From an uncultured Eubacteriales bacterium (GTDB lineage Bacteria; Bacillota_A; Clostridia; Oscillospirales; Oscillospiraceae), in NCBI GenBank assembly GCA_949747935.1, contig CATKHE010000171.1:1-17180 (forward strand): 17,180 bases of DNA, written 5' to 3'. Each line of letters begins with the position of its first letter. Position 1 is the stretch's first letter. The notes under the pieces are model-generated. The model was not told the DNA's origin and did no database searches. It saw only the letters and a program-made list of their open reading frames with translations. Position numbers and translations under genes: made by a program. Shown here in pieces: positions 2,301 through 17,180 of this stretch.

Positions 2301-2329
2301 ATTTTACCAGACTAAGCCTCAATTTTCAA
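2301..2329 (-). promoter_or_regulatory. Sigma-A promoter for the DUF1385-prmC operon
   Basis: On the minus strand: -35 TTGAAA (2324-2329), a 17-base spacer and -10 TAAAAT (2301-2306), with a TG extension one base before the -10. The -35 lies inside the last codons of the upstream kinase gene. The expected transcript start is near 2294, giving a leader of about 100 bases. Spacing and hexamers are close to consensus. Confidence 0.7.
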
Positions 2330-3746
2330 CCGGCAGATAAATTGTGACAATGAACCCTCCGCCCTCGGCGTTGCCTACCTCCATTCGCCCCTCGTGTCGG
2401 ACTACAATCTCCTCACAAACGGCCAGTCCAATGCCTGAGCCCCGCGCCTTAGAGCTGCCCTTATAGAACTTGTTTTTCAGATAGGGCAGTTCCTCCTCAA
2501 GCGCTCCCGGACCGTAGTCCCGGATTCGGATAACAGCGTCGTTCCCCTCCTGATAGAGGGAAACCAAAATATGTTTCCCTGCGCCGCCGTGCTTGGCCGC
2601 ATTGTCCAGCAGATTGCAGAACACCTGCCGCAGCCGTTCCGGGTCACCGGAAATGGGCAGCATCTCCTCTGGACCGTCTGCGTAGTCCAGCGTAATGCCC
2701 TCCTTACGGAAAAACTCCTTATATGTGTATACCGCGTCCTCCAGCTCCGCTTTCAGGTCCAGCGGCTCCACCGACAGGGTAAACCGGCCGTCCTCAATAC
2801 GGGAAAACCCCAGCAGCTCCTCCACCATATTGCTCAGCCGCTTGGCCTCGGACACAATAATAGACATGCCCTTGCGCATATCCTCAGCGGAACGGACCTC
2901 TCCGGCCTGTATGGTCTCCGCCCAGCCTGTGATGGCGGTGAGGGGAGTGCGCAGTTCATGGGACATAGAGGAAATAAACTCGCTTTGCGTTTTCTCTGAC
3001 TGACGGATCTTCATCGACATGTCGTTAATAGCGTCGGTAAGTTCGCCGATCTCATCGTCAAACTTCTTCTCAATCTGAACGCCGTAGCTTCCGTCGGCAA
3101 TCACCCGGGCAATTTCGGTAATAGCGGCCAGAGGTTCTACAATGGAGCGGACAAAATACAAGTTGGAAAAATACACCATAGCAAAAATACCCAAGGCAAT
3201 TGCCGAAATCACCGCCATGGCGAAGGTAAACTGCCGGTCAATTCCGGACAGAGAGGTGACATAGCGAATGACCCCTACCACCTCCCCCTGGTAGATTACC
3301 GGGCTGGAGGCGGCCAGGATTCGCTCTCCGGTGTCGGGGTCCCTCCCTCTCCAGGGACTGGCGCTCCGCTCATTCAGGGCCTTTTGAATGTCAGGGGTGC
3401 TGGGGGTACTGCCGGCGGTCAGGTCGTTTCCGGAGTACAGCACCGCTCCGGCGGTGTCCAGAAACTGAAGCTCCAGCCGGCTCTTGTCCTCATAGCTGCT
3501 CACCGCCTGTTGGGCCGCAGCCCGGTAGTCAGAGCTGGTATACATCCGAAACCCGTTAGCGGAGGATGTGGCCTTTCGCTCCAGGTCGTCCGCCGGGCCG
3601 CTGTAATAGTAGCTCCACAGCATGGCGGCAAACGCACTTACAGCCAGCACCAGAATCAGCAGCACAATGGCCACACTGTTTACCAGCCACCGCCGCCGGA
3701 TGCCGCGGATTTTGACCTGGTCCTGTAATCTTGTAGCCTTGGCCAT
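2319..3746 (-). CDS. Membrane sensor histidine kinase with HAMP domain
   Basis: A 475-residue two-component sensor kinase. Domains in order: a basic N-terminus, helix 1 at about 22-44, an outside sensor region of about 125 residues (45-172), helix 2 at about 174-198, HAMP at about 200-250, a HisKA domain with phospho-acceptor His263 in SxSHELRTPL, then the ATPase domain with N-box NLLDNAAKHG (378-387), G1 DYGPG (410-414) and G2 GSGIGLAV (436-443). All catalytic boxes look intact. The outside region has no motif I can name. AGGAGGAGGTGA precedes the ATG at ideal spacing. It is the third gene of an operon, 78 bases after the response regulator, across a GC-rich palindromic gap. The natural partner is the adjacent OmpR-type regulator; the stimulus is unknown. 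Confidence 0.95.
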   Translation of the reverse strand: MAKATRLQDQVKIRGIRRRWLVNSVAIVLLILVLAVSAFAAMLWSYYYSGPADDLERKATSSANGFRMYTSSDYRAAAQQAVSSYEDKSRLELQFLDTAGAVLYSGNDLTAGSTPSTPDIQKALNERSASPWRGRDPDTGERILAASSPVIYQGEVVGVIRYVTSLSGIDRQFTFAMAVISAIALGIFAMVYFSNLYFVRSIVEPLAAITEIARVIADGSYGVQIEKKFDDEIGELTDAINDMSMKIRQSEKTQSEFISSMSHELRTPLTAITGWAETIQAGEVRSAEDMRKGMSIIVSEAKRLSNMVEELLGFSRIEDGRFTLSVEPLDLKAELEDAVYTYKEFFRKEGITLDYADGPEEMLPISGDPERLRQVFCNLLDNAAKHGGAGKHILVSLYQEGNDAVIRIRDYGPGALEEELPYLKNKFYKGSSKARGSGIGLAVCEEIVVRHEGRMEVGNAEGGGFIVTIYLPVEN

Positions 3747-3775
3747 TGTGGTTCACCTCCTCCTGTTAATCCTTC

Positions 3776-3815
3776 CGCCCCGCCCGCGGGCGGGGCGCAT
3801 CCTCCCCCGGGGGAG
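3776..3815. repeat. Two adjacent GC-rich perfect palindromes between regulator and kinase genes
   Basis: The 78-base gap between the regulator stop and kinase start holds a 22-bp perfect palindrome (3776-3797, centre CCCGCGGG) and, four bases away, a 14-bp perfect palindrome (3802-3815, CTCCCCCGGGGGAG). In RNA these would form very stable hairpins just after the regulator stop. Neither has a T-run. They could protect the upstream message end or lower kinase output relative to regulator. The palindromes are seen directly; the role is inference. Confidence 0.75.
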
Positions 3816-3824
3816 CAGAGTTTT

Positions 3825-4514
3825 TCAGCTCCCCCACTTATATCCATACCCCCACACAGTGTTGACAAAGGTGGGCTTCTGGGCATTGTCCTCAATCTTG
3901 ATCCGAAGGCGGCGGATGTTCACATCCACAATTTTCAGCTCGCCGAAGTAATCCTTGCCCCACACGGTATCCAGTATTTCCTCCCGGGACAGGGCCTTGC
4001 CCGGATTTTCCATAAACAGCTTGACGATGGAGTACTCCACCTGGGTGAGCTTGACCCGCTGCCCGTTCTTCTCCAGCGTTCGGTTGCGGGTGTTGAGCAA
4101 AAAGGGCGGGTCGCTGATCTCATCAGGTGAGATGGGCGCCTCATCTCCGCCGGTACGGCGGAAAAGAGCATCCACCCGGGCGGTGAGCTCGGCAGGTGAG
4201 AAGGGCTTGGTCACATAGTCGTCCGCCCCGGTCATCAGACCTGTGACCTTATCCATCTCCTGAGTACGGGCGGTAAGCATGATAATGCCGATTTTGTTGT
4301 CCATGGCCCGCAGACGGCGACAGACCTCAAAACCGTCGATGCCGGGCAGCATGATATCCAGCAGGGCCACCTTGATATCCGGATTGTCCCGGACGGCACC
4401 CAGGGCCTCCTCACCGGTTCCCGCCTCCACAGTTTGATAACCCGCCCGCTTCAGGTTGATTACCACAAAGCTGCGGATATTTTCCTCGTCCTCCAGGACC
4501 AATACCTTTCTCAT
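3825..4514 (-). CDS. OmpR/PhoB-family response regulator
   Basis: A 229-residue DNA-binding response regulator. The receiver domain (about 1-118) has the acidic pocket EDEE at 8-11, phospho-acceptor Asp53 (LLDIMLPGIDG), Thr81 (LTAR) and Lys103 (TKPF). The C-terminal winged helix (about 130-229) has the typical LTQVEYSIVKLF, SREEILDTVWG, VDVNIRRLRIKIE and VNTVWGYGYK blocks. All signalling residues are present. GGGAGG lies upstream of the ATG. It starts 21 bases after the lipoprotein stop and is followed by its partner kinase, so the three genes are very probably co-transcribed. Its targets are unknown, and no direct repeat resembling an OmpR-type site was recognised at the operon promoter. Confidence 0.95.
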   Translation of the reverse strand: MRKVLVLEDEENIRSFVVINLKRAGYQTVEAGTGEEALGAVRDNPDIKVALLDIMLPGIDGFEVCRRLRAMDNKIGIIMLTARTQEMDKVTGLMTGADDYVTKPFSPAELTARVDALFRRTGGDEAPISPDEISDPPFLLNTRNRTLEKNGQRVKLTQVEYSIVKLFMENPGKALSREEILDTVWGKDYFGELKIVDVNIRRLRIKIEDNAQKPTFVNTVWGYGYKWGS

Positions 4515-4535: not shown

Positions 4536-5984
4536 TTACTCACTGTACCAGCTTCTTCGGATGGTATTGAACCGCTCCAGCAGGTCCAGCTCGTCCAGCC
4601 CGCAGTCCCAACTGCTTTTGTGAAAACGGGCGGCATAGGTAACATTTTCCTCCTCGCAGAGGACAATCCAGCCCGCCTCCTCCAGATCAGAGCTGCGGCT
4701 GCTGGAAACGCGGTAGATACTCAGGAACGGCTCCGGCTCCTGCTCCTCGCCCCTCCAATTGGAAAATACCACCTCCCGACGGCCGGTGACCTGATCGTTG
4801 CGGGAAATGGTGATTTGATCCCGCCAGCTCTCCGGGATGGTCAGATACCATCCATCACTTACATTGTGATAGGTGGTGAGCACATGGCTGCGCTTTCCGC
4901 GCACGTCGTACTGGGCCCAGTCAATCAGCCAGAAATTGCTGGACGAGCTCTCCCCATAGCTGGGCAGGGAATAAGGCGCGGGCAGCTCGGCCACCATGTC
5001 CAGATTGATGTCAGTAGGATTAATCTCGGTATAGCCCTGGATGCGCTCCCGGCTGACCCCCTCCTCTGACATCGCCACATTGGTGAGCCTGCCCCCTACA
5101 TAGGCCACCACATCAATCACCCGACCACCCTCTGCCAGGGTGCTGGTGACATACAGGGCGGGCTGATTGTAGTCCCCGGCCAGATAATTGGTGCGGACGC
5201 GGCTGACTGCGCTGATGCCGGCGGACAACTCGGCGGTATCCAGCAAGGCCATCGCCCCGTCCTCCCAGCCATAGACCTCCACCTGACTGCTCGCTCCCCC
5301 AACGTCTACTCGGGTGACCAGCACCTCAATTCGGGTGTCTTTATCCATGTCCAACAGCCGGCAGCCGCTGGATCCGTCGCTTGCCACACTGCACCGGGTG
5401 AGCAGCCGTTCCATGCCTGTCAGGTCCATCCGTGTCATCGCTCTGACAGCTGCTAAAGCCTCCTCCTCGCTCAGTCCCTCGCTGGGCAGGTCGATCTCGT
5501 CCAAGGTATACACCCCAAGCTGATATGCGCCGGAGCTGATCTGCCAGTTCACAGCCAGCTCCTTCCGGCCTTCCCCGTTAATCTGAGCGTAGTCTATGGC
5601 GTAAATGGCGCTGCCCTCGCCCTCTACCACACCGGTAACCACATACTCCTCCCCAATCTGGGTAAAAATGTAGATCTTGATAGGCTTTTCAATACCCGGC
5701 ACCCGAAAAAACGTCACTGCGCTCTCCCGCAGGCCATCTCCGTCCAGGTCCTGGAGCTGGATGCTGGCGGTATTGTCCCCCGCCATAATGGTTACATCCT
5801 CCACACGGGTGCTGAATTCCAGCTCCAGCCCTGTGCGCACCGTCCGGATTGCTCCGTTAAGCTGTTCATATCCTGCCGACTTCTCCGGCTGCCGGTACAG
5901 ATCGTCCGGCGAACGGAACAGACAGCCACTGAGCAGCAGAGACGCCGCCAACATCAGCGCAAGACTTCTCCCTTTCTTTCTCAC
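4536..5984 (-). CDS. Lipoprotein co-encoded with a two-component system
   Basis: A 482-residue predicted lipoprotein: basic MRKKGR start, hydrophobic core, then lipobox LLSGC with Cys21 as the lipid-modified residue. The mature part is an acidic, beta-rich extracytoplasmic protein with a DLDGDG loop at 79-84, resembling calcium-binding VCBS/FG-GAP-type loops, and a second weaker one (LLDMDKDTRIEV). I know no named family for it. The start is GTG, supported by AGGAGGGC closely upstream. It opens the operon that continues with the response regulator and kinase, so it may act as an accessory sensor or as a product under their control. An extended -10 promoter lies about 60 bases upstream. Lipoprotein call is firm; function unknown. 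Confidence 0.85.
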   Translation of the reverse strand: MRKKGRSLALMLAASLLLSGCLFRSPDDLYRQPEKSAGYEQLNGAIRTVRTGLELEFSTRVEDVTIMAGDNTASIQLQDLDGDGLRESAVTFFRVPGIEKPIKIYIFTQIGEEYVVTGVVEGEGSAIYAIDYAQINGEGRKELAVNWQISSGAYQLGVYTLDEIDLPSEGLSEEEALAAVRAMTRMDLTGMERLLTRCSVASDGSSGCRLLDMDKDTRIEVLVTRVDVGGASSQVEVYGWEDGAMALLDTAELSAGISAVSRVRTNYLAGDYNQPALYVTSTLAEGGRVIDVVAYVGGRLTNVAMSEEGVSRERIQGYTEINPTDINLDMVAELPAPYSLPSYGESSSSNFWLIDWAQYDVRGKRSHVLTTYHNVSDGWYLTIPESWRDQITISRNDQVTGRREVVFSNWRGEEQEPEPFLSIYRVSSSRSSDLEEAGWIVLCEEENVTYAARFHKSSWDCGLDELDLLERFNTIRRSWYSE

Positions 5985-11038: not shown

Positions 11039-11107
11039 TGAAAAATCCATGAAGGTTTTTTTAATATCCTCCGAAATTTTTGTCTCCTTTTGTAACCATA
11101 CTGTAAC

Positions 11108-11139
11108 TTGACGGTCATCCACTTCAAGTGTAGTATAAT
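11108..11139 (+). promoter_or_regulatory. Promoter of the repressor/protease/sensor operon
   Basis: TTGACG (11108-11113) is a good -35. Either TAGTAT (11131-11136, 17-base spacing) or TATAAT (11134-11139, perfect hexamer but 20-base spacing) serves as the -10. Both lie inside the left arm and loop of the operator dyad, so a bound repressor would cover the -10 and start site. Expected transcript start is about 11143-11146. Confidence 0.65.
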
Positions 11140-11163
11140 AATCAACTACAATTGAAGTGGATG
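11116..11163. promoter_or_regulatory. Large inverted-repeat operator for the BlaI-type repressor
   Basis: Arms 11116-11134 and 11145-11163 are 19-base inverted copies with one mismatch, around a 10-base AT-rich centre. The inner part reads TGTAGT...ACTACA, matching the TACA/TGTA core typical of BlaI/MecI operators. It covers the -10 region and ends eight bases before the ATG of the BlaI-type gene, so the repressor very likely controls its own operon. The dyad is seen directly; repressor identity is inferred from position and family. Confidence 0.8.
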
Positions 11164-11170
11164 TGATGTG

Positions 11171-11542
11171 ATGAAACGGCTTCCTGACACTGAGCTTGAG
11201 GTCATGAAAGCCCTGTGGGCCACCGGTCCCGACACCCCCCGAGCCCTTCTGGAGGAGCGCCTGTCTCTCTTCGGCTGGGCCTCCAACACGGTCAACACCT
11301 ATCTCTCCCGCCTGGCGGACAAGGGCTTTGTGGCTGTCCGCCGGGAGGGAAAGAGCAACCTTTACTCCCCCCTGATCGGTCAGGAGGAGTATCAGTCCTT
11401 CGATAGCCGGGCCGTCTTGGACCGGCTGTACGGCTCCCCCCGGAACTTTGTCGCCGCCCTGGCCCGCAAGGGCCTGGAGCGGAGCGAGCTGGAGGAGCTC
11501 CAGACCCTCCTTGACCAGCTGAAGGGAGGTCAGAGCCGATGA
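11171..11542 (+). CDS. BlaI/MecI/CopY-family transcriptional repressor
   Basis: A 123-residue winged-helix repressor of the Penicillinase_R family. It opens with the family block LPDTELEVMKALW (4-16). The recognition region WASNTVNTYLSRLADKGFV spans 36-54 and the wing VRREGKSNLYSPLI 57-70. The C-terminal dimer helix has the typical SELEELQTLLDQL. Asn92-Phe93 (RNFVAAL) sits where S. aureus BlaI and MecI are cut (Asn101-Phe102, from memory), so proteolytic inactivation by the adjacent M56 protein is plausible. I chose ATG 11171; GTG 11168 directly before it is also possible, and the ribosome site is weak (AAGTGG). Its stop overlaps the M56 start as ATGA, so expression is coupled. It lies directly behind a strong operator dyad. 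Confidence 0.93.
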   Translation: MKRLPDTELEVMKALWATGPDTPRALLEERLSLFGWASNTVNTYLSRLADKGFVAVRREGKSNLYSPLIGQEEYQSFDSRAVLDRLYGSPRNFVAALARKGLERSELEELQTLLDQLKGGQSR

Positions 11543-12477
11543 ATCAGGTTCTTCTCACCCTCGGTGCTCTGACTCTGGGCGGCTCTGCCGCGGTGTTTCT
11601 CCTTTCCCTCACCAGCCGCTCCACCTGGGGCCGGTATGGGGCAAAATGGCGGTGCTGGGCTTGGCTTCTGCTCTGTCTGAGGCTGGCGCTTCCCTTCCCG
11701 CTCATGCCCCGCTGGGAAGCCCGGGCCCCCTTCCAAATGGATGTTCCGCCCACTCCTGTCATTACGCCGGGACCCACCGTGCCCGGACAGTCTCCAGCCG
11801 TTCCCCCATCGGCCGGAAGCACTCAGAGCGGACCGACTCCGCCTGCCGGACCGGCGGACGGCTCCTCCGTCACGCCCCCCGACGGCTCCGCCCCTCTCCC
11901 TCCTGTGGAGGCAAAGTCCTCCCGCTCCATCTCCCTCGCCCACATACTTCTGTGGATATGGCTGGCAGGGGCCGCCGCGGCGACGGTCTGGAATCTGCGT
12001 GCTCACTTCCGCTTCCTGAACTATCTGCGCCGCTGGGCCTCCCCCGTCACCGACGCGGAAGCCGTGTTGGCCTTCAACCGTCTAGGCGATCAGCTGGAAC
12101 TGGACCGGCGTCCCCGGCTGCTGGTGTGTCAGGGACTGAAGGTGCCCATGCTGGCCGGGATCTTTCGTCCGGCTATCCTTCTTCCCCAGGGAAATATCTC
12201 CGGGGAGGAGCTGGGCTTTTCCCTTCTTCATGAGCTCACCCACTACCGCCGCCGGGATATCTGGCTCAAATCCCTATCCATGTGGGTCAGCACCCTGCAC
12301 TGGTTCAACCCCTTCATGTGGTATATGATGCGTCTGGTGGAGCGGGATACCGAACTGGCCTGCGACGAGGACGCCCTGCGCCGTCTGTCCCCGGAGGATT
12401 ACTCCCCCTATGGTCAGACCATTCTCGCCGCTGTTGCAAGATTACAGAACAGAGAAAGGATCGAAACCGATGAATAA
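11539..12477 (+). CDS. M56-family (BlaR1/MecR1-like) metalloprotease lacking a sensor domain
   Basis: A 312-residue membrane zinc protease of the antirepressor type. Helices at about 3-24 and 37-55, then a Pro/Ser/Thr-rich outside linker (69-130), helix 3 at about 131-151, then the cytosolic protease loop. The loop has the family block PMLAGIFRPAILLP (203-216), the zinc motif HELTH at 231-235 and ERDTELACDE (268-277) with the expected third-ligand Glu. A hydrophobic stretch lies at about 245-263. In BlaR1 and MecR1 such a protease leads to cleavage of BlaI or MecI after the outside domain senses beta-lactam. This protein stops right after YGQTILAAVARLQN, without the fourth helix or any outside sensor. 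The missing parts appear as separate downstream genes. It overlaps both neighbours (4 and 8 bases). Confidence 0.9.
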   Translation: MNQVLLTLGALTLGGSAAVFLLSLTSRSTWGRYGAKWRCWAWLLLCLRLALPFPLMPRWEARAPFQMDVPPTPVITPGPTVPGQSPAVPPSAGSTQSGPTPPAGPADGSSVTPPDGSAPLPPVEAKSSRSISLAHILLWIWLAGAAAATVWNLRAHFRFLNYLRRWASPVTDAEAVLAFNRLGDQLELDRRPRLLVCQGLKVPMLAGIFRPAILLPQGNISGEELGFSLLHELTHYRRRDIWLKSLSMWVSTLHWFNPFMWYMMRLVERDTELACDEDALRRLSPEDYSPYGQTILAAVARLQNRERIETDE

Positions 12478-12640
12478 CAATATACCCCGCACCCCCTTCT
12501 CCACCCACCTGTCCCGGTCGGCGAAGGAGACGGAAATTCGTATCCGTAATATCTTCTCAGGACCCAAAAAGCGCCCTCCCTTTCTGCTGATTGTTCTGGT
12601 CGGCGCGCTGTGTCTGCTGTGCGGCAATCTGGTGGCCTTC
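12470..12640 (+). repeat. Conserved sensor start module, copy 1
   Basis: The 171-base segment encoding the first 57 residues recurs at the start of four consecutive genes. This copy shares a 30-base exact run with copy 2 from 12485, but its membrane helix is the most divergent and it ends in Phe, not Cys. Confidence 0.85.
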
Positions 12641-13852
12641 CGCCCCCTCCCCGCACAGCCCACCCTGGTGATGGAGACCCAATACTACGACACCAACAGC
12701 AATTATGTTGAGATACCCGCCCTGGCCCTCCCCGCTGGAGAGAAAAATGAGGCGGTGGAGGCCATCAACGCCGCACTTAACGACTTGCAGGAGGAATATG
12801 CCGACCTTGCCTCCCGGACGGGAGAGGACGCTCTGGATAATCAGTGCCTGTTCTACCCCTCCACCACCAACCGATACTTGAACCTGCTGTTCTATCGGGA
12901 TACCTTCACCACCGACCTGAACACCGGCCACGTCTTCTCCCTGGTCTACGACAAAAAGGAGGGGACGCTGGTATCTATAGAGGACGCCCTGGCCCGGGCC
13001 GGGCTGAACGAGAAGGGGCTGCTGGACCAGGTCACTGAGCAAGTCCAAGCACAAATCGACCGTGAGTACCAGGAGTACGACTTTCAGCTGGCGCTCCACA
13101 GTCTGACCCTGGAGGGCTTCCGCATCAAGGCGGACGGACAGCCGGTGTTCTACCTCACCGGGTGGGTGGACGACGTGGACGACGCGGTTCTGGACGCCAT
13201 CAGCGGTGCGGGCCACCTGTATATCTGTGAGGACCGGGCTGTCACTACTTACAATCGGTACAGCGGGGATTCCTCTCCCCTGGTCCCCGCCGAGGAGACC
13301 GACCAGCTGGACCCGCCCCTGTGGAACCAGTGGTATTTTGCCGGGGAGGAGCCGGAAGGCGGCTTTGTCCAGATTGAATCGCCCCTTTCCGGCCTGTCTG
13401 ACCCGGAGGTCTGCCTGTACCGGGACGGCTTCTCCACCCCCATCGGCCCGCTCATGTCGATAAACAGTTCCTTTTTCGCTCCGCTGATCCAGAACAGCGA
13501 AACGCTCTACGGATATGAGCCCACCTACCTGGAAGGGGATTACTGGTTCAGCGCCAACGGAGACGGCTTCCTATCCACCAATTATTACGATCCCACCGAC
13601 GGAACCGACAGTGTCTTTCTGCTGGACGTGACCCGTACCGACGTGTACACTCCCCGGGGCATCCGGGTAGGGGACAGTCGGGAGGCCGTGCTGGCCGCCT
13701 ACCCCGGGATCTATGACACTCCATACTTAAGCTATGGCGGAGATTACCTGTGGTACTGTGAATACGAGGAGGGCTGGGGCTCCGCCGTTCTGTTCTTCTT
13801 CTCCAATACGAATACAGTCCAGTCCATTCAACTTCACTTTCTGAATTACTAG
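12470..13852 (+). CDS. Detached sensor subunit 1 of the split M56 system
   Basis: A 460-residue membrane-anchored protein. Residues 5-37 (PRTPFSTHLS...SGPKKRPP) are a basic cytosolic segment almost identical to that of the next three genes. Helix at about 38-56 ends LVAF, with Phe where the others have Cys. The outside part has a region (about 70-260) that looks DUF3298/RsiV-like: paired helix INAALNDLQEEY, LNTGHVFSL, and SIEDALARAG. A C-terminal block GIRVGDSREAVLAAYPG (397-413) is common in Bacillota extracytoplasmic proteins. The ATG overlaps the end of the M56 gene by 8 bases; AAAGGA lies upstream. An upstream extension to 12410 overlaps M56 and was rejected because the paralogues start at the matching point. 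Sensor role is inferred from layout; ligand unknown. Confidence 0.82.
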   Translation: MNNNIPRTPFSTHLSRSAKETEIRIRNIFSGPKKRPPFLLIVLVGALCLLCGNLVAFRPLPAQPTLVMETQYYDTNSNYVEIPALALPAGEKNEAVEAINAALNDLQEEYADLASRTGEDALDNQCLFYPSTTNRYLNLLFYRDTFTTDLNTGHVFSLVYDKKEGTLVSIEDALARAGLNEKGLLDQVTEQVQAQIDREYQEYDFQLALHSLTLEGFRIKADGQPVFYLTGWVDDVDDAVLDAISGAGHLYICEDRAVTTYNRYSGDSSPLVPAEETDQLDPPLWNQWYFAGEEPEGGFVQIESPLSGLSDPEVCLYRDGFSTPIGPLMSINSSFFAPLIQNSETLYGYEPTYLEGDYWFSANGDGFLSTNYYDPTDGTDSVFLLDVTRTDVYTPRGIRVGDSREAVLAAYPGIYDTPYLSYGGDYLWYCEYEEGWGSAVLFFFSNTNTVQSIQLHFLNY

Positions 13853-13869
13853 CCGGGAAAGGAGACGCC

Positions 13870-14040
13870 ATGAATGAAAAAATGCCCCGCACCCCCTTCT
13901 CCACCCACCTGTCCGGGTCGGCAAAGGAGACGGAAATTCGACTGCGAAACATCTTCTCCGGACCCAAGAAGCGGCCACCGGTGCTGTTTCTGTCCCTGAT
14001 GTTCTCCGCATGTATTTTCTGCGGCAATTTAGTGTCCTGC
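13870..14040 (+). repeat. Conserved sensor start module, copy 2
   Basis: Second copy of the 171-base module. At protein level it matches copy 3 at 51 of 57 positions by hand count. Likeness falls away sharply after Cys57. Confidence 0.88.
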
Positions 14041-15129
14041 AACGTGGCCGAGGTGGAGCAAAACATCTCCCCGCAAAGCCCATCCGCGTCTTCCTCTGTC
14101 GAGACGGAAATTTCTGTCCCGCTCCAGGAAATAGACCGGGCCATACTGGAAAATATCGACCTGGACGGCGACGGGCTCCCTGACCGGCTCACTGTGGTGA
14201 CCCAGCAGTTTGAGGAACAGAAGGGCCCCTACAACGCACACCCAAACCGCATGGTTCTTCAGGCAGTGATGGGCAGCGGCCAGGTGCTGGACTGCATCTG
14301 GGAGGACCCCGGTGCGCCGATGGTCCGCACCCTGAAGGCGGGCCATCTCACCTCCGAGGCCCACGAGGACATCCTGCTGGAGCTCGAGGTCGGCAACAGC
14401 AACTACGCCGCTGCGGTTGTCTACGTTGTCCGGATCATCGACGGTGAGCTGACAGCGGAACCGTTCGGGATGGACTTTGCCACCCTCTGGGGGTCCTGTC
14501 TCGTTCCCCGGGAGGACAGTCCTCTGGACGCCGTCCGCATCCCCGTCAGCGTGGACAAATGGGCGCCCCCCGTCTGGTACGCCCTGCGCTGGAATGGGAC
14601 GGAGTTCGAGCTGTCTCTGGAGCCCGAGGTCAAAACCTACTCCGCCGCCACGGCCAGCGGCCACACCCACACCCTGATTCCCCAGGGACATATCCTCAAA
14701 TACGATACCTTTGACTGCTTTGAGCAGATCCAGGTGTGGGATGATTCCGTCCTGTTCCAGACCATTACCGAAGCTTCCGTGGTTCAGGATGACAGCCATC
14801 TCTTTGAAGGAATCTTGCGTCTTACCGTCTCAGGCGAGCAGTTGGACATCCAGGACGTGAACTTTGACGGCTCGGAGGACTTTGGCATCTACTGCGGCGG
14901 CAGCTACAACGGCCCCATGTACTGGTTCCTGTGGGATGAGGAGACATGGAGCTTCCGGCCCGGCTTTTTCTCCTCCGCCAACCTGACCATAGACTTGGAG
15001 AAAAAACAGCTGGTGGACGTCTGGAAGGACGGCTACGCCGGCCGTGACTACTACACCTATCGATTCAACGACCAGGGGGAGCGGGAACTGGTGGATCATC
15101 AGCGTGTTGACTTCCCCATGCCTAAATAA
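13870..15129 (+). CDS. Detached sensor subunit 2 of the split M56 system
   Basis: A 419-residue protein starting with the shared module: cytosolic PRTPFSTHLSGSAKE...SGPKKRPP, helix about 38-56, then LVSC with Cys57. LVSC fits a lipobox, but the cytosolic lead of about 37 residues is long for a lipoprotein signal, so it may be a plain membrane anchor or a lipoprotein. A Ser/Pro-rich linker follows. The outside domain has DLDGDG at 97-102 and DVNFDG at 329-334, loops of the calcium-binding VCBS/FG-GAP kind, and otherwise matches nothing I can name. It starts 17 bases after gene 1, with AAAGGAG upstream. The outside part shows no evident likeness to that of gene 1. Co-transcription is near certain from spacing; function is inferred. 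Confidence 0.82.
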   Translation: MNEKMPRTPFSTHLSGSAKETEIRLRNIFSGPKKRPPVLFLSLMFSACIFCGNLVSCNVAEVEQNISPQSPSASSSVETEISVPLQEIDRAILENIDLDGDGLPDRLTVVTQQFEEQKGPYNAHPNRMVLQAVMGSGQVLDCIWEDPGAPMVRTLKAGHLTSEAHEDILLELEVGNSNYAAAVVYVVRIIDGELTAEPFGMDFATLWGSCLVPREDSPLDAVRIPVSVDKWAPPVWYALRWNGTEFELSLEPEVKTYSAATASGHTHTLIPQGHILKYDTFDCFEQIQVWDDSVLFQTITEASVVQDDSHLFEGILRLTVSGEQLDIQDVNFDGSEDFGIYCGGSYNGPMYWFLWDEETWSFRPGFFSSANLTIDLEKKQLVDVWKDGYAGRDYYTYRFNDQGERELVDHQRVDFPMPK

Positions 15130-15139
15130 GGAGGATATT

Positions 15140-15310
15140 ATGTACGAAAAAATGCCCCGCACCCCCTTCTCCACCCCTCTGTCCGGGTCGGCGAAGGAGA
15201 CAGAACTGCGTCTGAAAAATATCTTCTCCGGGCCCAAGAAGCGGCCCCCGGTGCTGTTCCTGGTCCTGATGTTCTCGGTGTGTATCTTCTGCGGCAATCT
15301 GGTCTCCTGC
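15140..15310 (+). repeat. Conserved sensor start module, copy 3
   Basis: Third copy of the 171-base module. Many differences from copy 2 are silent third-base changes, which suggests selection on the protein rather than only very recent copying. Confidence 0.88.
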
Positions 15311-16939
15311 CAGGTAAAGGAGGCGGAGAACAATTCCCCTTCCTCCGGCGCGTCCCAGTCGGGGGACGTCTCTCTGGAGGGCGATCCCCCGGTCTCTGAC
15401 GTCACCTATCAATCTGTGCGTCAGGCAATGGCTCAGGAGGAACAGACCCTTCTGGAGAATCTGTTCCGGGCTGCCGAGCGGGAGGGCGGCTACCGCTTCC
15501 AGACCCCCTCCGCCCAACTGCTCACCACCGTTGACGCCCAGGACTGCATCCTGGGGGCGGTCTTTGTGGAGGACCACCTGGAGAACACCCTGATTCTGGG
15601 TGTCATGGAACGGGAGACCGGGGAAATCCCCCAGGGCGTTTTCCAATGCTCTGCGAAGAACGGCTGGCCCAACATTGTCGACATGTATGTCGATGAGAAG
15701 CCCTGTCTGCTCTACACCTTCAACGGCCAGGAGAACGGGCAGTATACCGGTCAGGCGGGGCTGGTCTGCCTGGAGGGGAAGGACCTCACCTGGAAGTGGC
15801 CGGCAGAGGGGGACGTGCGAGAACCGGAAAGCCCGGCCGGTCAGAAGTATCGGGATTTCTGGACCGGCCATCTGGCTCTGATGGCCCCCGGCGGGGTGGA
15901 TGTCTACGCCGTCAATCCGGACTTCCAATGGGGCAAGGACGAGCCCTGGTCCATGTGGCAGCTGGAGAACGGGGAGACCTTCTGGAGTAACTCCAGCTCC
16001 GCCGAGGAGCTGCCCATGCCCATCTACTTCCAGTCGCTGAGCTGGCTGGTGGAGTACACCAACGACCCCGGCGGCTGGCGGGTCCTCTCCCTGAAACCCA
16101 ACCGGGAGCTGTCCGACCCGGAAACCCGGACGGACTGCTTCACCCTGGAGGCCTGCACAGACAACGGTGCCGGTGCCTTCACTGCCGACCTGTTTTTCAA
16201 CTATGATTCGGAGCCGTCCCGGCCCCGGAGCTACAGCGAACTGGTCCACGCTGAGGTCCGCGCTCCGCTCCCCTCCGCCGCCGTCCCCGACCCGGAGGCC
16301 CGGGCGGCCTATGTCCGGGTCCTGGAGGACCTGCTCTACCGCTCTATCCTGCCCGACGGCGGTGAGGCGATCTTCGAGGATATGTCAGAAAACACCTTCG
16401 CCCTGGCCGACGTGGACGGAGACGGGCGGGAGGAGCTGGTCCTGCTCACCCGACCCAATATTTACGCCGGCTACCGGGGCTATATCCTGGATTACTACAA
16501 GAACGCCCTGGTCATCCAGCACGAGGGCTTTCCCTCCTTCACCTTCTACAGCAACGGGGCGTTCACCGAGGACGACTCCCACGCCCAGGGGGTCTGGACG
16601 GATACCTTCTGGCCCCACTCCCTCTACCGCTATCTGCCCGAGTCGGACAGCTATGAGCTGGCGGGCCATTTGTCCGCCTGGGAAAAGCAGGTCTCCGACA
16701 TCAACCCGGACAGTCTGCCCCCCTTCCCCACGGAAAAGGACAAGAGCGGGGCGGGTATTCTCTATTACATTCACCCGATCTCATCATATGAATACCTCAA
16801 CACCAGCGAAAGCCGCGTCAACATAGCGGTGGACCAGTCGGTCTATCTGGAGTGGCTGGAGCCCATCCTGGGGGACGCCCGGCCCCTGGAGCTGGAGCAT
16901 ATGCCCCTGACAGAAGAGAAAATCAACCGTCTGAAATAG
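15140..16939 (+). CDS. Detached sensor subunit 3 of the split M56 system
   Basis: At 599 residues this is the largest of the set. It has the shared start (PRTPFSTPLSGSAKE...SGPKKRPP), helix about 38-56 ending LVSC (Cys57), then a Ser/Gly linker. The outside part appears to have two domains: an N-terminal one (about 85-390) with no recognised motif, and a C-terminal one (about 395-599) with ALADVDGDGREEL (loop DVDGDG at 424-429), a pattern found in many Bacillota surface lipoproteins. The ATG at 15140 is preceded by AAGGAGG at ideal spacing. A longer frame from 15044 overlaps gene 2 and adds 32 residues absent from the paralogues, so it was rejected. Ten bases separate it from genes 2 and 4 on either side. 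Function inferred from context. Confidence 0.82.
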   Translation: MYEKMPRTPFSTPLSGSAKETELRLKNIFSGPKKRPPVLFLVLMFSVCIFCGNLVSCQVKEAENNSPSSGASQSGDVSLEGDPPVSDVTYQSVRQAMAQEEQTLLENLFRAAEREGGYRFQTPSAQLLTTVDAQDCILGAVFVEDHLENTLILGVMERETGEIPQGVFQCSAKNGWPNIVDMYVDEKPCLLYTFNGQENGQYTGQAGLVCLEGKDLTWKWPAEGDVREPESPAGQKYRDFWTGHLALMAPGGVDVYAVNPDFQWGKDEPWSMWQLENGETFWSNSSSAEELPMPIYFQSLSWLVEYTNDPGGWRVLSLKPNRELSDPETRTDCFTLEACTDNGAGAFTADLFFNYDSEPSRPRSYSELVHAEVRAPLPSAAVPDPEARAAYVRVLEDLLYRSILPDGGEAIFEDMSENTFALADVDGDGREELVLLTRPNIYAGYRGYILDYYKNALVIQHEGFPSFTFYSNGAFTEDDSHAQGVWTDTFWPHSLYRYLPESDSYELAGHLSAWEKQVSDINPDSLPPFPTEKDKSGAGILYYIHPISSYEYLNTSESRVNIAVDQSVYLEWLEPILGDARPLELEHMPLTEEKINRLK

Positions 16940-16949
16940 GAGAATCACT

Positions 16950-17120
16950 ATGAACAAAAACATGCCCCGCACCCCCTTCTCCACCGGGCTGTCCGGGTCG
17001 GCAAAGGAGATCGAGTTGCGTATCCGCAATATCATGTCCGGACCCAAGAAGCGGCCCCCGCTGCCCTTTTTGGCTCTGGTATTCTTCATCTGTATCTTCT
17101 GCGGCAATATTGTGTCCTGC
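16950..17120 (+). repeat. Conserved sensor start module, copy 4
   Basis: Fourth copy of the 171-base module. It keeps the invariant cytosolic residues (PRTPFST, SAKE, SGPKKRPP) and the final Cys; changes include H13G, T21I and F29M relative to copy 2. Confidence 0.88.
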
Positions 17121-17180
17121 CGGGTTGTGGAGAAGACGCCTCCGGCGGGCCCGGACAGCTCCGCTGTCTCATCCTCCCGG
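16950..17180 (+). CDS. Detached sensor subunit 4 of the split M56 system, 3' end cut by window edge
   Basis: The first 77 codons are visible, with no stop before the edge. The start MNKNMPRTPFSTGLSG, the SGPKKRPP segment, the helix at about 38-56 ending IVSC (Cys57) and the Pro/Ser linker (TPPAGPDSSAVSSS) repeat the module of the three genes before it. TAGGAG precedes the ATG by about nine bases, and the gene starts 10 bases after gene 3. The outside domain lies beyond the window, so whether it is again different cannot be seen. Its presence shows the array has at least four members. Confidence 0.85.
   Translation, partial: MNKNMPRTPFSTGLSGSAKEIELRIRNIMSGPKKRPPLPFLALVFFICIFCGNIVSCRVVEKTPPAGPDSSAVSSSR

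What the first reader, a model, noticed from the sequence alone, without database searches (positions are those of the whole stretch)
11171..17180. Split BlaR1-like system: one repressor, one truncated M56 protease and an array of detached sensor subunits
Seen: BlaI-type gene, an M56 gene that ends just after its protease loop, then at least four same-strand genes 10-17 bases apart (the first overlapping M56), all starting with the same cytosolic segment plus one helix and then different outside domains. Known: BlaR1/MecR1-type proteins carry protease loop, a connecting basic segment, a fourth helix and the sensor in one chain. In Clostridial M56 proteins the connecting segment has a similar Ser-Gly...Lys-Glu...Arg-Ile pattern (from memory). 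Inference: the fourth helix and sensor have been cut loose and multiplied, so several ligands could be read by a single protease and repressor. I know of no described system with this layout.
Basis: partly seen in the sequence, partly recalled or inferred. Interest (0 to 1): 0.9.

Follow-up and report, generated by a model that had tools for sequence, protein, structure and literature searches.

The report
Split BlaR1-type receptor with detached sensors
A bacterium carries a membrane-protease gene switch whose sensing half has been cut off and multiplied into several separate surface proteins, so one protease could listen to many signals, two of which may be wall-cutting enzymes such as lysozyme.

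Summary
Observation confirmed; interpretation largely holds. Bases 11171-17180 hold a BlaI-type repressor, an M56 protease ending within the region of BlaR1's autocleavage loop, and at least four genes sharing one N-terminus. Profiles place that N-terminus on the post-protease segment of intact M56 proteins (E 2.7e-9, independently chosen rows: E 1.4e-5). It matches BlaR1's autocleavage site, helix alpha9 with Arg294 (123 of 123 modules) and last membrane helix: the unit swapped in the BlaR1 dimer. The 36 split proteases read in full keep the other catalytic residues and end before this arginine. M56 adjoins modules in 18 of 19, 19 of 20 and 8 of 9 related loci, including a second M56 clade. 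New: a lipobox Cys ends the helix in 117 of 122 modules, so sensors are probably lipoproteins; ectodomains 1 and 2 resemble lysozyme-binding folds (RsiV, XAC2610); N-termini match same-locus paralogues better than ectodomain orthologues; exact operators occur only at this locus in six genomes. No contact or signalling was shown. Most likely: interchangeable sensor subunits complete a shared protease in trans.

The parts
11091..11107 (+). TGTAAC-N5-TGTAAC direct repeat just upstream of the -35 (looks like a response-regulator box; likeness to WalR boxes is recalled)
   Evidence: strict form in 20 of 37 BlaI upstream regions, loose form in 29 of 37; read in window
11108..11136 (+). promoter-like -35 TTGACG / -10 TAGTAT, 17 bp apart
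   Evidence: sequence; likeness to a consensus only
11122..11133 (+). BlaI-type operator 1, CTTCAAGTGTAG
   Evidence: pattern in 34 of 37 upstream regions, pattern written after seeing them
11146..11157 (+). BlaI-type operator 2, CTACAATTGAAG, inverted relative to operator 1
   Evidence: 33 of 37 upstream regions; exact ACTACANNTGAAGT lies only at this locus in each of 6 genomes
11171..11542 (+). BlaI/MecI-type repressor, 123 aa
   Evidence: Pfam PF03965 E 6.3e-25; MecI structure 1okr E 5.9e-8
11539..12477 (+). truncated M56 zinc metalloprotease, 312 aa; ends inside the region of BlaR1's autocleavage loop; lacks alpha9, the last TM helix and a sensor
   Evidence: PF05569 E 8.8e-43; NCBIfam blaR1_generic E 2.5e-32 but below its cut-off; catalytic set kept
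12470..13852 (+). module 1: shared N-terminus (LVAF, no lipobox Cys) plus RsiV/DUF3298-like ectodomain and a second C-terminal domain
13870..15129 (+). module 2: shared N-terminus with LVSC lipobox plus beta-rich ectodomain ending in an XAC2610-like domain
15140..16939 (+). module 3: shared N-terminus with LVSC lipobox plus 542-aa ectodomain, not folded here
   Evidence: only a weak FG-GAP match in Pfam and none in NCBIfam
16950..17180 (+). module 4: shared N-terminus with IVSC lipobox; ectodomain cut by the window end

Best explanation
This is a BlaR1-type receptor split into two kinds of subunit. The M56 protein supplies the membrane metalloprotease. Each module supplies what M56 lacks: the autocleavage (substrate-like) segment, helix alpha9 with the active-site arginine, the last membrane helix and an outside sensor. 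In S. aureus BlaR1 this helix pair is already swapped between the two chains of the dimer, so supplying it from another protein is structurally natural. Proposed working: different modules dock onto shared M56 proteins; without ligand the module's FSTxL segment sits in and blocks the active site; ligand binding outside, perhaps together with cutting or protection at the lipobox by signal peptidase II, shifts alpha9 and the helix, frees the protease and lets it cut BlaI; BlaI leaves the two operators and the operon, sensors included, is induced. Sensors 1 and 2 most likely bind lysozyme-like or other wall-cutting enzymes. Shown: gene layout, homology of the module, conservation of the arginine, P1' and lipobox positions, recurrence, operator location, fold likeness. 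Inferred: docking, gating, BlaI cleavage, lipidation and ligands.
For: Homology: hhalign 96.2%, E 2.7e-9; 80.3%, E 1.4e-5 with 9 independently chosen intact rows; shuffles at most 3.7 and 4.0 of 60 each. Position: the profile of 18 intact M56 proteins aligns to BlaR1 (8exp) residues 5-323, E 2e-28, with its invariant Arg on Arg294; module Arg24 123 of 123, residue 14 (P1') L/F/M in 124 of 124, residue 10 (P4) F/L in 124 of 124. 36 of 36 split M56 proteins read in full keep the HExxH, Asp210, Glu242, Asp246 and Tyr261 equivalents and have 71-87 residues from the first His to the end. BlaR1 structure paper: alpha9 and alpha10 swapped, Arg294' in the active site, signal peptidase site after Gly331 (PMC9834060: passages and section 6). 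Recurrence. N-terminus 81.2% identical among same-locus paralogues, 70.1% between ectodomain orthologues of different loci; paralogues higher in 158 of 204. Exact operators only at the locus in 6 of 6 genomes. Folds.
Against: No complex was predicted or measured. Likeness of same-locus N-termini could come from gene conversion alone, the pairs are not independent, and among the closest orthologues (ectodomain 70-95% identical) the effect is gone: 79.6 against 79.9, paralogue higher in 18 of 38. Arg24 may be conserved for another reason: an older report puts BlaR1's cut at Arg293-Arg294 (PMC3356374, passages). The lipobox implies that the sensor may be cut away from the helix that should carry the signal. 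L191 has a module with no M56 or BlaI on its contig. The S. aureus BlaI cleavage site (Asn101-Phe102) has no clear equivalent here: the conserved NF of these repressors aligns upstream of it (by eye). The BlaR1 authors hold that autocleavage is spontaneous and not part of signalling. No separate effector gene is known. Fold matches rest on models of mean pLDDT 74 and 71 with poor N-termini; Foldseek alone gave no module 1 match at E <= 0.001, and a match to another fold (over another part of the model) follows XAC2610 within 0.2 Z.
Confidence: 0.7

Rival explanations
1. The modules are outputs, not inputs: envelope lipoproteins (wall-enzyme inhibitors and the like) whose long signal peptide is a substrate or docking tag for M56, while BlaI simply controls their expression.
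For: Cys57 in 117 of 122 aligned modules; two ectodomains resemble lysozyme-binding or inhibitor folds and one class has a LytR_CpsA_Psr enzyme domain; the only exact operators are at the operon itself, so the module genes are among the regulated genes.
Against: Does not explain why the catalytic arginine is invariant on modules and missing from the short M56, nor the descent of the N-terminus from M56's own chain. Can be true together with the main reading.
Confidence: 0.2
2. The system monitors lipoprotein maturation: unprocessed module N-termini occupy M56, and the state of signal peptidase II processing, rather than ligand binding, is the signal.
For: Cys57 is one of three invariant positions among 22 diverse modules; BlaR1's sensor is also cut by a signal peptidase just after the same helix (PMC9834060, passages); 18 of 57 intact M56 proteins have a lipobox-like motif there, though only 2 of the 20 found by Pfam alone do.
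Against: Would not need 44 ectodomain classes among 118 modules; 26 of 119 listed homologues of module 1 have Phe in place of Cys.
Confidence: 0.09
3. Ordinary decay or misassembly: a broken BlaR1 gene with duplicated fragments.
For: Some modules are broken or rearranged: in L002, L016, L019, L084 and L086.
Against: 44 distinct split M56 domain sequences, catalytic residues kept in the 36 of 36 read in full, Arg24 in 123 of 123 modules.
Confidence: 0.01

Closest known systems
BlaR1/MecR1-BlaI/MecI (Staphylococcus aureus; structure 8exp)
   Same: BlaI-type repressor beside an M56 gluzincin protease; same catalytic residues; same autocleavage-loop, alpha9-arginine and last-helix segment; palindromic operator-like sites; a signal-peptidase-type site after the last helix.
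   Different: BlaR1 is one chain with one beta-lactam sensor. Here protease and sensors are separate genes, 1-7 module genes were counted per locus, no penicillin-binding domain was found in the modules scanned, and the site after the helix is a lipobox.
Mycobacterial BlaR (Rv1845c)-BlaI
   Same: M56-type protein said to lack the outside sensor, with a BlaI repressor (PMC5473688, one passage).
   Different: That passage describes no detached helix-plus-sensor genes; whether the protein keeps alpha9 and the last helix was not checked here.
RsiV (lysozyme receptor and anti-sigma factor)
   Different: The N-terminus is M56-derived and aligns with no anti-sigma domain here.
XAC2610-type inhibitors of lysozyme-like effectors
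   Different: Joined to an M56-derived N-terminus and further beta structure.

Membership tests
BlaR1/MecR1 receptor | M56 metalloprotease domain with HExxH and ExxxD | tested here: met
BlaR1/MecR1 receptor | adjacent BlaI/MecI-type repressor | tested here: met
   window; BlaI in 16 of 19 loci, 19 of 20, 8 of 9
BlaR1/MecR1 receptor | protease, last TM helix and sensor in one chain | tested here: not met
   36 of 36 split M56 proteins end 71-87 residues from the first His of HExxH; helix and sensor are in separate genes
BlaR1/MecR1 receptor | penicillin-binding (class D-like) sensor domain | tested here: not met
   no such Pfam match in the window modules or in 20 class representatives
BlaR1/MecR1 receptor | alpha9 arginine (Arg294) and autocleavage segment | tested here: met
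   present, but on the modules: Arg24 123 of 123, hydrophobic P1' 124 of 124
BlaR1/MecR1 receptor | NCBIfam blaR1_generic above its cut-off | tested here: not met
   112 bits against 400
BlaR1/MecR1 receptor | induction by beta-lactam and cleavage of the repressor | not testable with these tools
   needs experiment
bacterial lipoprotein | lipobox after a hydrophobic stretch | tested here: met
   modules 2-4 of the window; Cys57 in 117 of 122 aligned modules. Module 1 does not meet it (LVAF).
bacterial lipoprotein | processing by signal peptidase II and lipidation | not testable with these tools
   needs experiment
RsiV | lysozyme-binding ectodomain fold (module 1) | tested here: inconclusive
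RsiV | cytosolic anti-sigma domain | tested here: not met
   the N-terminus is the M56-derived segment
XAC2610-related proteins (NF047539) | family profile above curated cut-off (module 2 C-terminal domain) | tested here: met
   42.8 bits against 35

The most novel reading that the evidence does not exclude
A many-inputs-one-protease receptor: detached, mostly lipoprotein sensors each carry the swapped helix pair and the catalytic arginine of an M56 protease, so a protease that is incomplete on its own is completed and gated in trans by whichever sensor is docked. The sensors form an exchangeable set aimed at lysozymes and other wall-cutting enzymes, and the split arose more than once in the loop where BlaR1 cuts itself.
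Probability: 0.45. Interest if true: 0.93.

Novelty: new variant of a known kind. Interest (0 to 1): 0.86.

Why it matters
As far as I know, BlaR1-type receptors have been described as single chains with one sensor. Here the chain is cut in the very loop where BlaR1 cuts itself, and the swapped half has become exchangeable. If right, this is a natural split protease whose sensing can be studied by exchanging small subunits; it makes the open question of how the outside of BlaR1 controls its inside testable by supplying the swapped half in trans; and it suggests how these bacteria may sense wall-cutting enzymes of hosts or rivals.

Tried and rejected
Rejected: frameshift, pseudogene or misassembly (recurrence). 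Rejected: my first idea that the conserved NF of BlaI (28 of 36 split-linked repressors, Phe in 36 of 36) is the S. aureus Asn101-Phe102 cleavage site; the MecI alignment puts it upstream, so it is not claimed. Corrected: I first thought the lipobox was gained on splitting; 18 of 57 intact M56 proteins have a similar motif. That set is biased, since many were found with the module profile; of the 20 found by Pfam alone 2 have it. Corrected on re-check: 8 of the 18 intact rows used had been found with the module HMM; one search repeats the test without them (weaker, E 1.4e-5, still well above shuffles).

Not settled: one or several origins of the split. The tree of 101 protease domains needs 4 changes of label, starred branches force 2, and none of 200 bootstrap trees puts the split rows on one side of a branch, but the AU test does not reject that (p 0.139), and long branches are present.

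Led nowhere: plasmid collection, module 2 N-terminus (no match). Pfam on 20 ectodomain class representatives: 17 without a match at E 0.05, one LytR_CpsA_Psr over cut-off, two weak ones below cut-off. NCBIfam on 20 representatives: one over cut-off (LCP), weak XAC2610 in two, one other weak. PDB sequence searches with modules 1 and 2: none up to E 10, and only E 0.59-0.63 matches to an unrelated protease. Foldseek of module 1: none at E <= 0.001. An effector gene after the array: only the longest next same-strand frame was looked at, no shared effector seen. TGTAAC repeat elsewhere: 2-5 exact sites in each of 5 genomes and 1 in the sixth, locus included where exact; downstream genes mostly unclear. 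Paper searches aimed at a split M56 system: no paper; two that by title do not concern it and were not opened (open-access PMC only). Not classified as intact or detached: family-scan matches G047, G085, G129 and G188 and the matches without a locus.
Full report
WHAT IS THERE. The window carries, on the + strand, a BlaI-type repressor (11171-11542), an M56 metalloprotease gene (11539-12477) and four genes that begin with the same stretch (12470-13852, 13870-15129, 15140-16939, 16950 to the window end). The first 61 residues of the other three are 66, 74 and 87% identical to those of module 2. No genome is held for the window, so the far end of the array was not seen. The closest protein to module 2 (98% identity over the first 60 residues, also 419 aa) is named as from Oscillospiraceae bacterium 44-34.

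RECURRENCE. A scan of genome contigs with the four N-termini gave 19 loci, titled Oscillospiraceae, Lawsonibacter, Flintibacter, Colidextribacter or uncultured bacteria. M56 is present in 18 of 19 and BlaI in 16 of 19; L003, L011 and L017 are cut by contig ends. Module rows per locus are 1-7, broken ones included. A scan of 300 genomes of the same family gave 34 with matches at E <= 0.001: by the loci read, 22 have detached modules (for G028 judged from its frame alone), 8 are intact M56 proteins (L072-L079) and 4 were not classified. Of 20 larger stretches from 19 of these genomes, 19 hold M56 and 19 hold BlaI; in 18 the M56 is complete and short, in L096 it is cut by the contig end, and L097 has neither before its contig ends. 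Gene order varies: in L095 and L096 module genes stand between BlaI and M56. L094 carries a split and an intact BlaI-M56 system side by side. A protein search with the module N-terminus found 436 proteins, 120 listed. One with the M56 protein found 513, and the 120 listed are 281-315 aa long; the tool's length limits (0.55 to 1.75 times the query) would have hidden most intact proteins there.

WHAT THE SHARED N-TERMINUS IS. A profile of 126 module rows aligns with a profile of 18 intact M56 proteins at hhalign probability 96.2, E 2.7e-9, right after the protease loop; 60 controls with shuffled columns reach at most 3.7. Eight of those 18 had been found with the module HMM. With 9 intact proteins found by Pfam alone the result is probability 80.3, E 1.4e-5, at the same place, shuffles at most 4.0. 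The module HMM's hits in 8 of 8 intact M56 proteins of the family scan start 71-78 residues after HExxH. The intact profile aligns to S. aureus BlaR1 (8exp) over residues 5-323, E 2e-28, with its invariant arginine on Arg294 and a hydrophobic position on Phe284 (positions read off the printed alignment). By this chain, module residues 13|14 match the Ser283|Phe284 autocleavage bond and Arg24 matches Arg294. Over the module rows: Arg24 123 of 123; residue 14 L, F or M in 124 of 124; residue 10 F or L in 124 of 124; Thr12 120 of 124. AlphaFold2 models of modules 1 and 2 show helices at about 18-30 and 38-54, at low confidence.

WHAT THE PROTEASE HAS LOST. The 36 split M56 proteins that could be read in full keep HExxH and the equivalents of Asp210, Glu242, Asp246 and Tyr261 (36 of 36), and have 71-87 residues from the first His to the end, which is about BlaR1 271-287 if no gaps intervene: inside the autocleavage loop (271-289), before Arg294 (three partial rows and the intact copy of L094 were left out). 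The BlaR1 structure paper reports that alpha9 and alpha10 are swapped between the two chains, that Arg294' of the other chain pairs with Asp246 in the active site, that the autocleavage loop enters the active site, and that signal peptidase cuts after Gly331 just beyond alpha10 (PMC9834060: abstract, passages and section 6). It also concludes that autocleavage is spontaneous and not part of signalling, and an older paper places the cut at Arg293-Arg294 (PMC3356374, passages). The module is thus the swapped unit plus the substrate-like loop, made into a gene of its own.

LIPOBOX. Of 126 module rows 115 match a lipobox pattern after the helix; of the 11 others five are of the LVAF type and the rest are broken or mis-started. 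In the alignment Cys57 is 117 of 122 and the other five are Phe. Among 22 very different modules only Pro6, Arg24 and Cys57 are invariant. Window module 1 belongs to the Phe group; of 119 listed homologues of its ectodomain 89 have Cys, 26 Phe and 4 no readable motif. Among 57 intact M56 proteins 18 have a lipobox-like motif there, but only 2 of the 20 found by Pfam alone. So the sensors are probably cut and lipidated near the place where BlaR1 is cut by signal peptidase I. How a signal would pass after such a cut is open.

ONE PROTEASE, MANY PARTNERS. For 204 reciprocal-best ectodomain pairs between loci the N-termini are 70.1% identical, about the same as non-orthologous pairs of the same two loci (69.3%), while same-locus paralogues are 81.2% identical; the paralogues are closer in 158 of 204 (the near-identical pair L004-L011 was left out). 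For the 38 closest orthologue pairs the difference is gone (79.6 against 79.9). So the N-terminus follows the genome rather than the ectodomain, as expected if it must fit the local M56; gene conversion alone is an alternative, and the pairs are not independent.

CONTROL. Upstream of BlaI, two inverted operator-like sites flank the -10 region (34 and 33 of 37 upstream regions; one of the 37 belongs to the intact system of L094) and a TGTAAC-N5-TGTAAC repeat adjoins the -35 (strict 20 of 37, loose 29 of 37) (patterns written after seeing the sequences). The exact site ACTACANNTGAAGT occurs in 6 of 6 genomes searched only at this locus (8 exact sites); with one mismatch the pattern is rarer than its reversed control. 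The operon thus seems to control itself; no separate effector gene was found.

A SECOND CLADE. Searching 391 genomes of the class and 295 of the order (34 and 53 with matches) turned up detached modules of another type, such as MKNKYISPPFLSTSFSESGKKAK, next to BlaI and short M56 genes in L187, L188, L189, L190, L192 and L193 (in L193 one module is cut by the contig end and one looks incomplete), and a module with no M56 or BlaI on its contig in L191. In the tree of 101 protease domains the split ones form a group of 38 and a group of 6 placed with two intact proteins; starred branches force two changes, but the AU test does not reject one group (p 0.139).

VERDICT. The architecture is real and conserved, and five paper searches aimed at it (open-access PMC only) found no description; of the ten searches in all, the nearest published relative met is mycobacterial BlaR without sensor (PMC5473688, one passage). 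It most likely works like BlaR1 with exchangeable swapped halves, but it is not BlaR1 in the strict sense: protease and sensor are not one chain and no penicillin-binding sensor was found. Contact, gating, lipidation and ligands remain to be shown.

Noticed in passing
window 11091-11107: TGTAAC-N5-TGTAAC direct repeat at the -35 of the operon, found in strict form upstream of 20 of 37 BlaI genes; exact sites also occur elsewhere in the 6 genomes searched, once before a gene for a secreted SH3-like protein (L134/L138; SH3 is my reading). WalR likeness is recalled.
   Followed up: partly
L144, L145, L151, L152, L167, L176-L182, L184, L185, L197, L077, L031, L046: Intact, full-length M56 proteins with a lipobox-like motif at the end of the last helix, inside a polytopic protein (18 of 57).
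   Followed up: partly
L094:2337-9128: A split BlaI-M56-module system followed by an intact BlaI-M56 system in the same genome.
   Followed up: no
L191:8089-8676: A module gene with no M56 or BlaI found on its 15.5-kb contig.
   Followed up: no
L002:12571-13188, L016:7611-8585, L019:5578-6129, L084:10849-12384, L086:6350-6712: Broken or rearranged module genes inside arrays, suggesting birth and loss of sensors.
   Followed up: no
L001, L006, L008, L009, L012, L014, L015, L017, L019, L080, L081 (after the array): The next gene contains MKVA[IVL]FGAGTMG in 11 loci, so the array often sits at the same chromosomal place (3-hydroxyacyl-CoA dehydrogenase is my reading).
   Followed up: no
window 2319-4514: Histidine kinase and OmpR-type response regulator genes on the - strand, followed by a lipoprotein-like gene at 4536-5984 (my reading of the translations).
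   Followed up: no
window 12470-13852 and its homologues: The same ectodomain type is joined to a helix ending in Phe or in the lipobox Cys in different relatives (26 and 89 of 119).
   Followed up: partly
L196:6334-7818: BlaI followed by an M56 gene of the intact type in several pieces.
   Followed up: no
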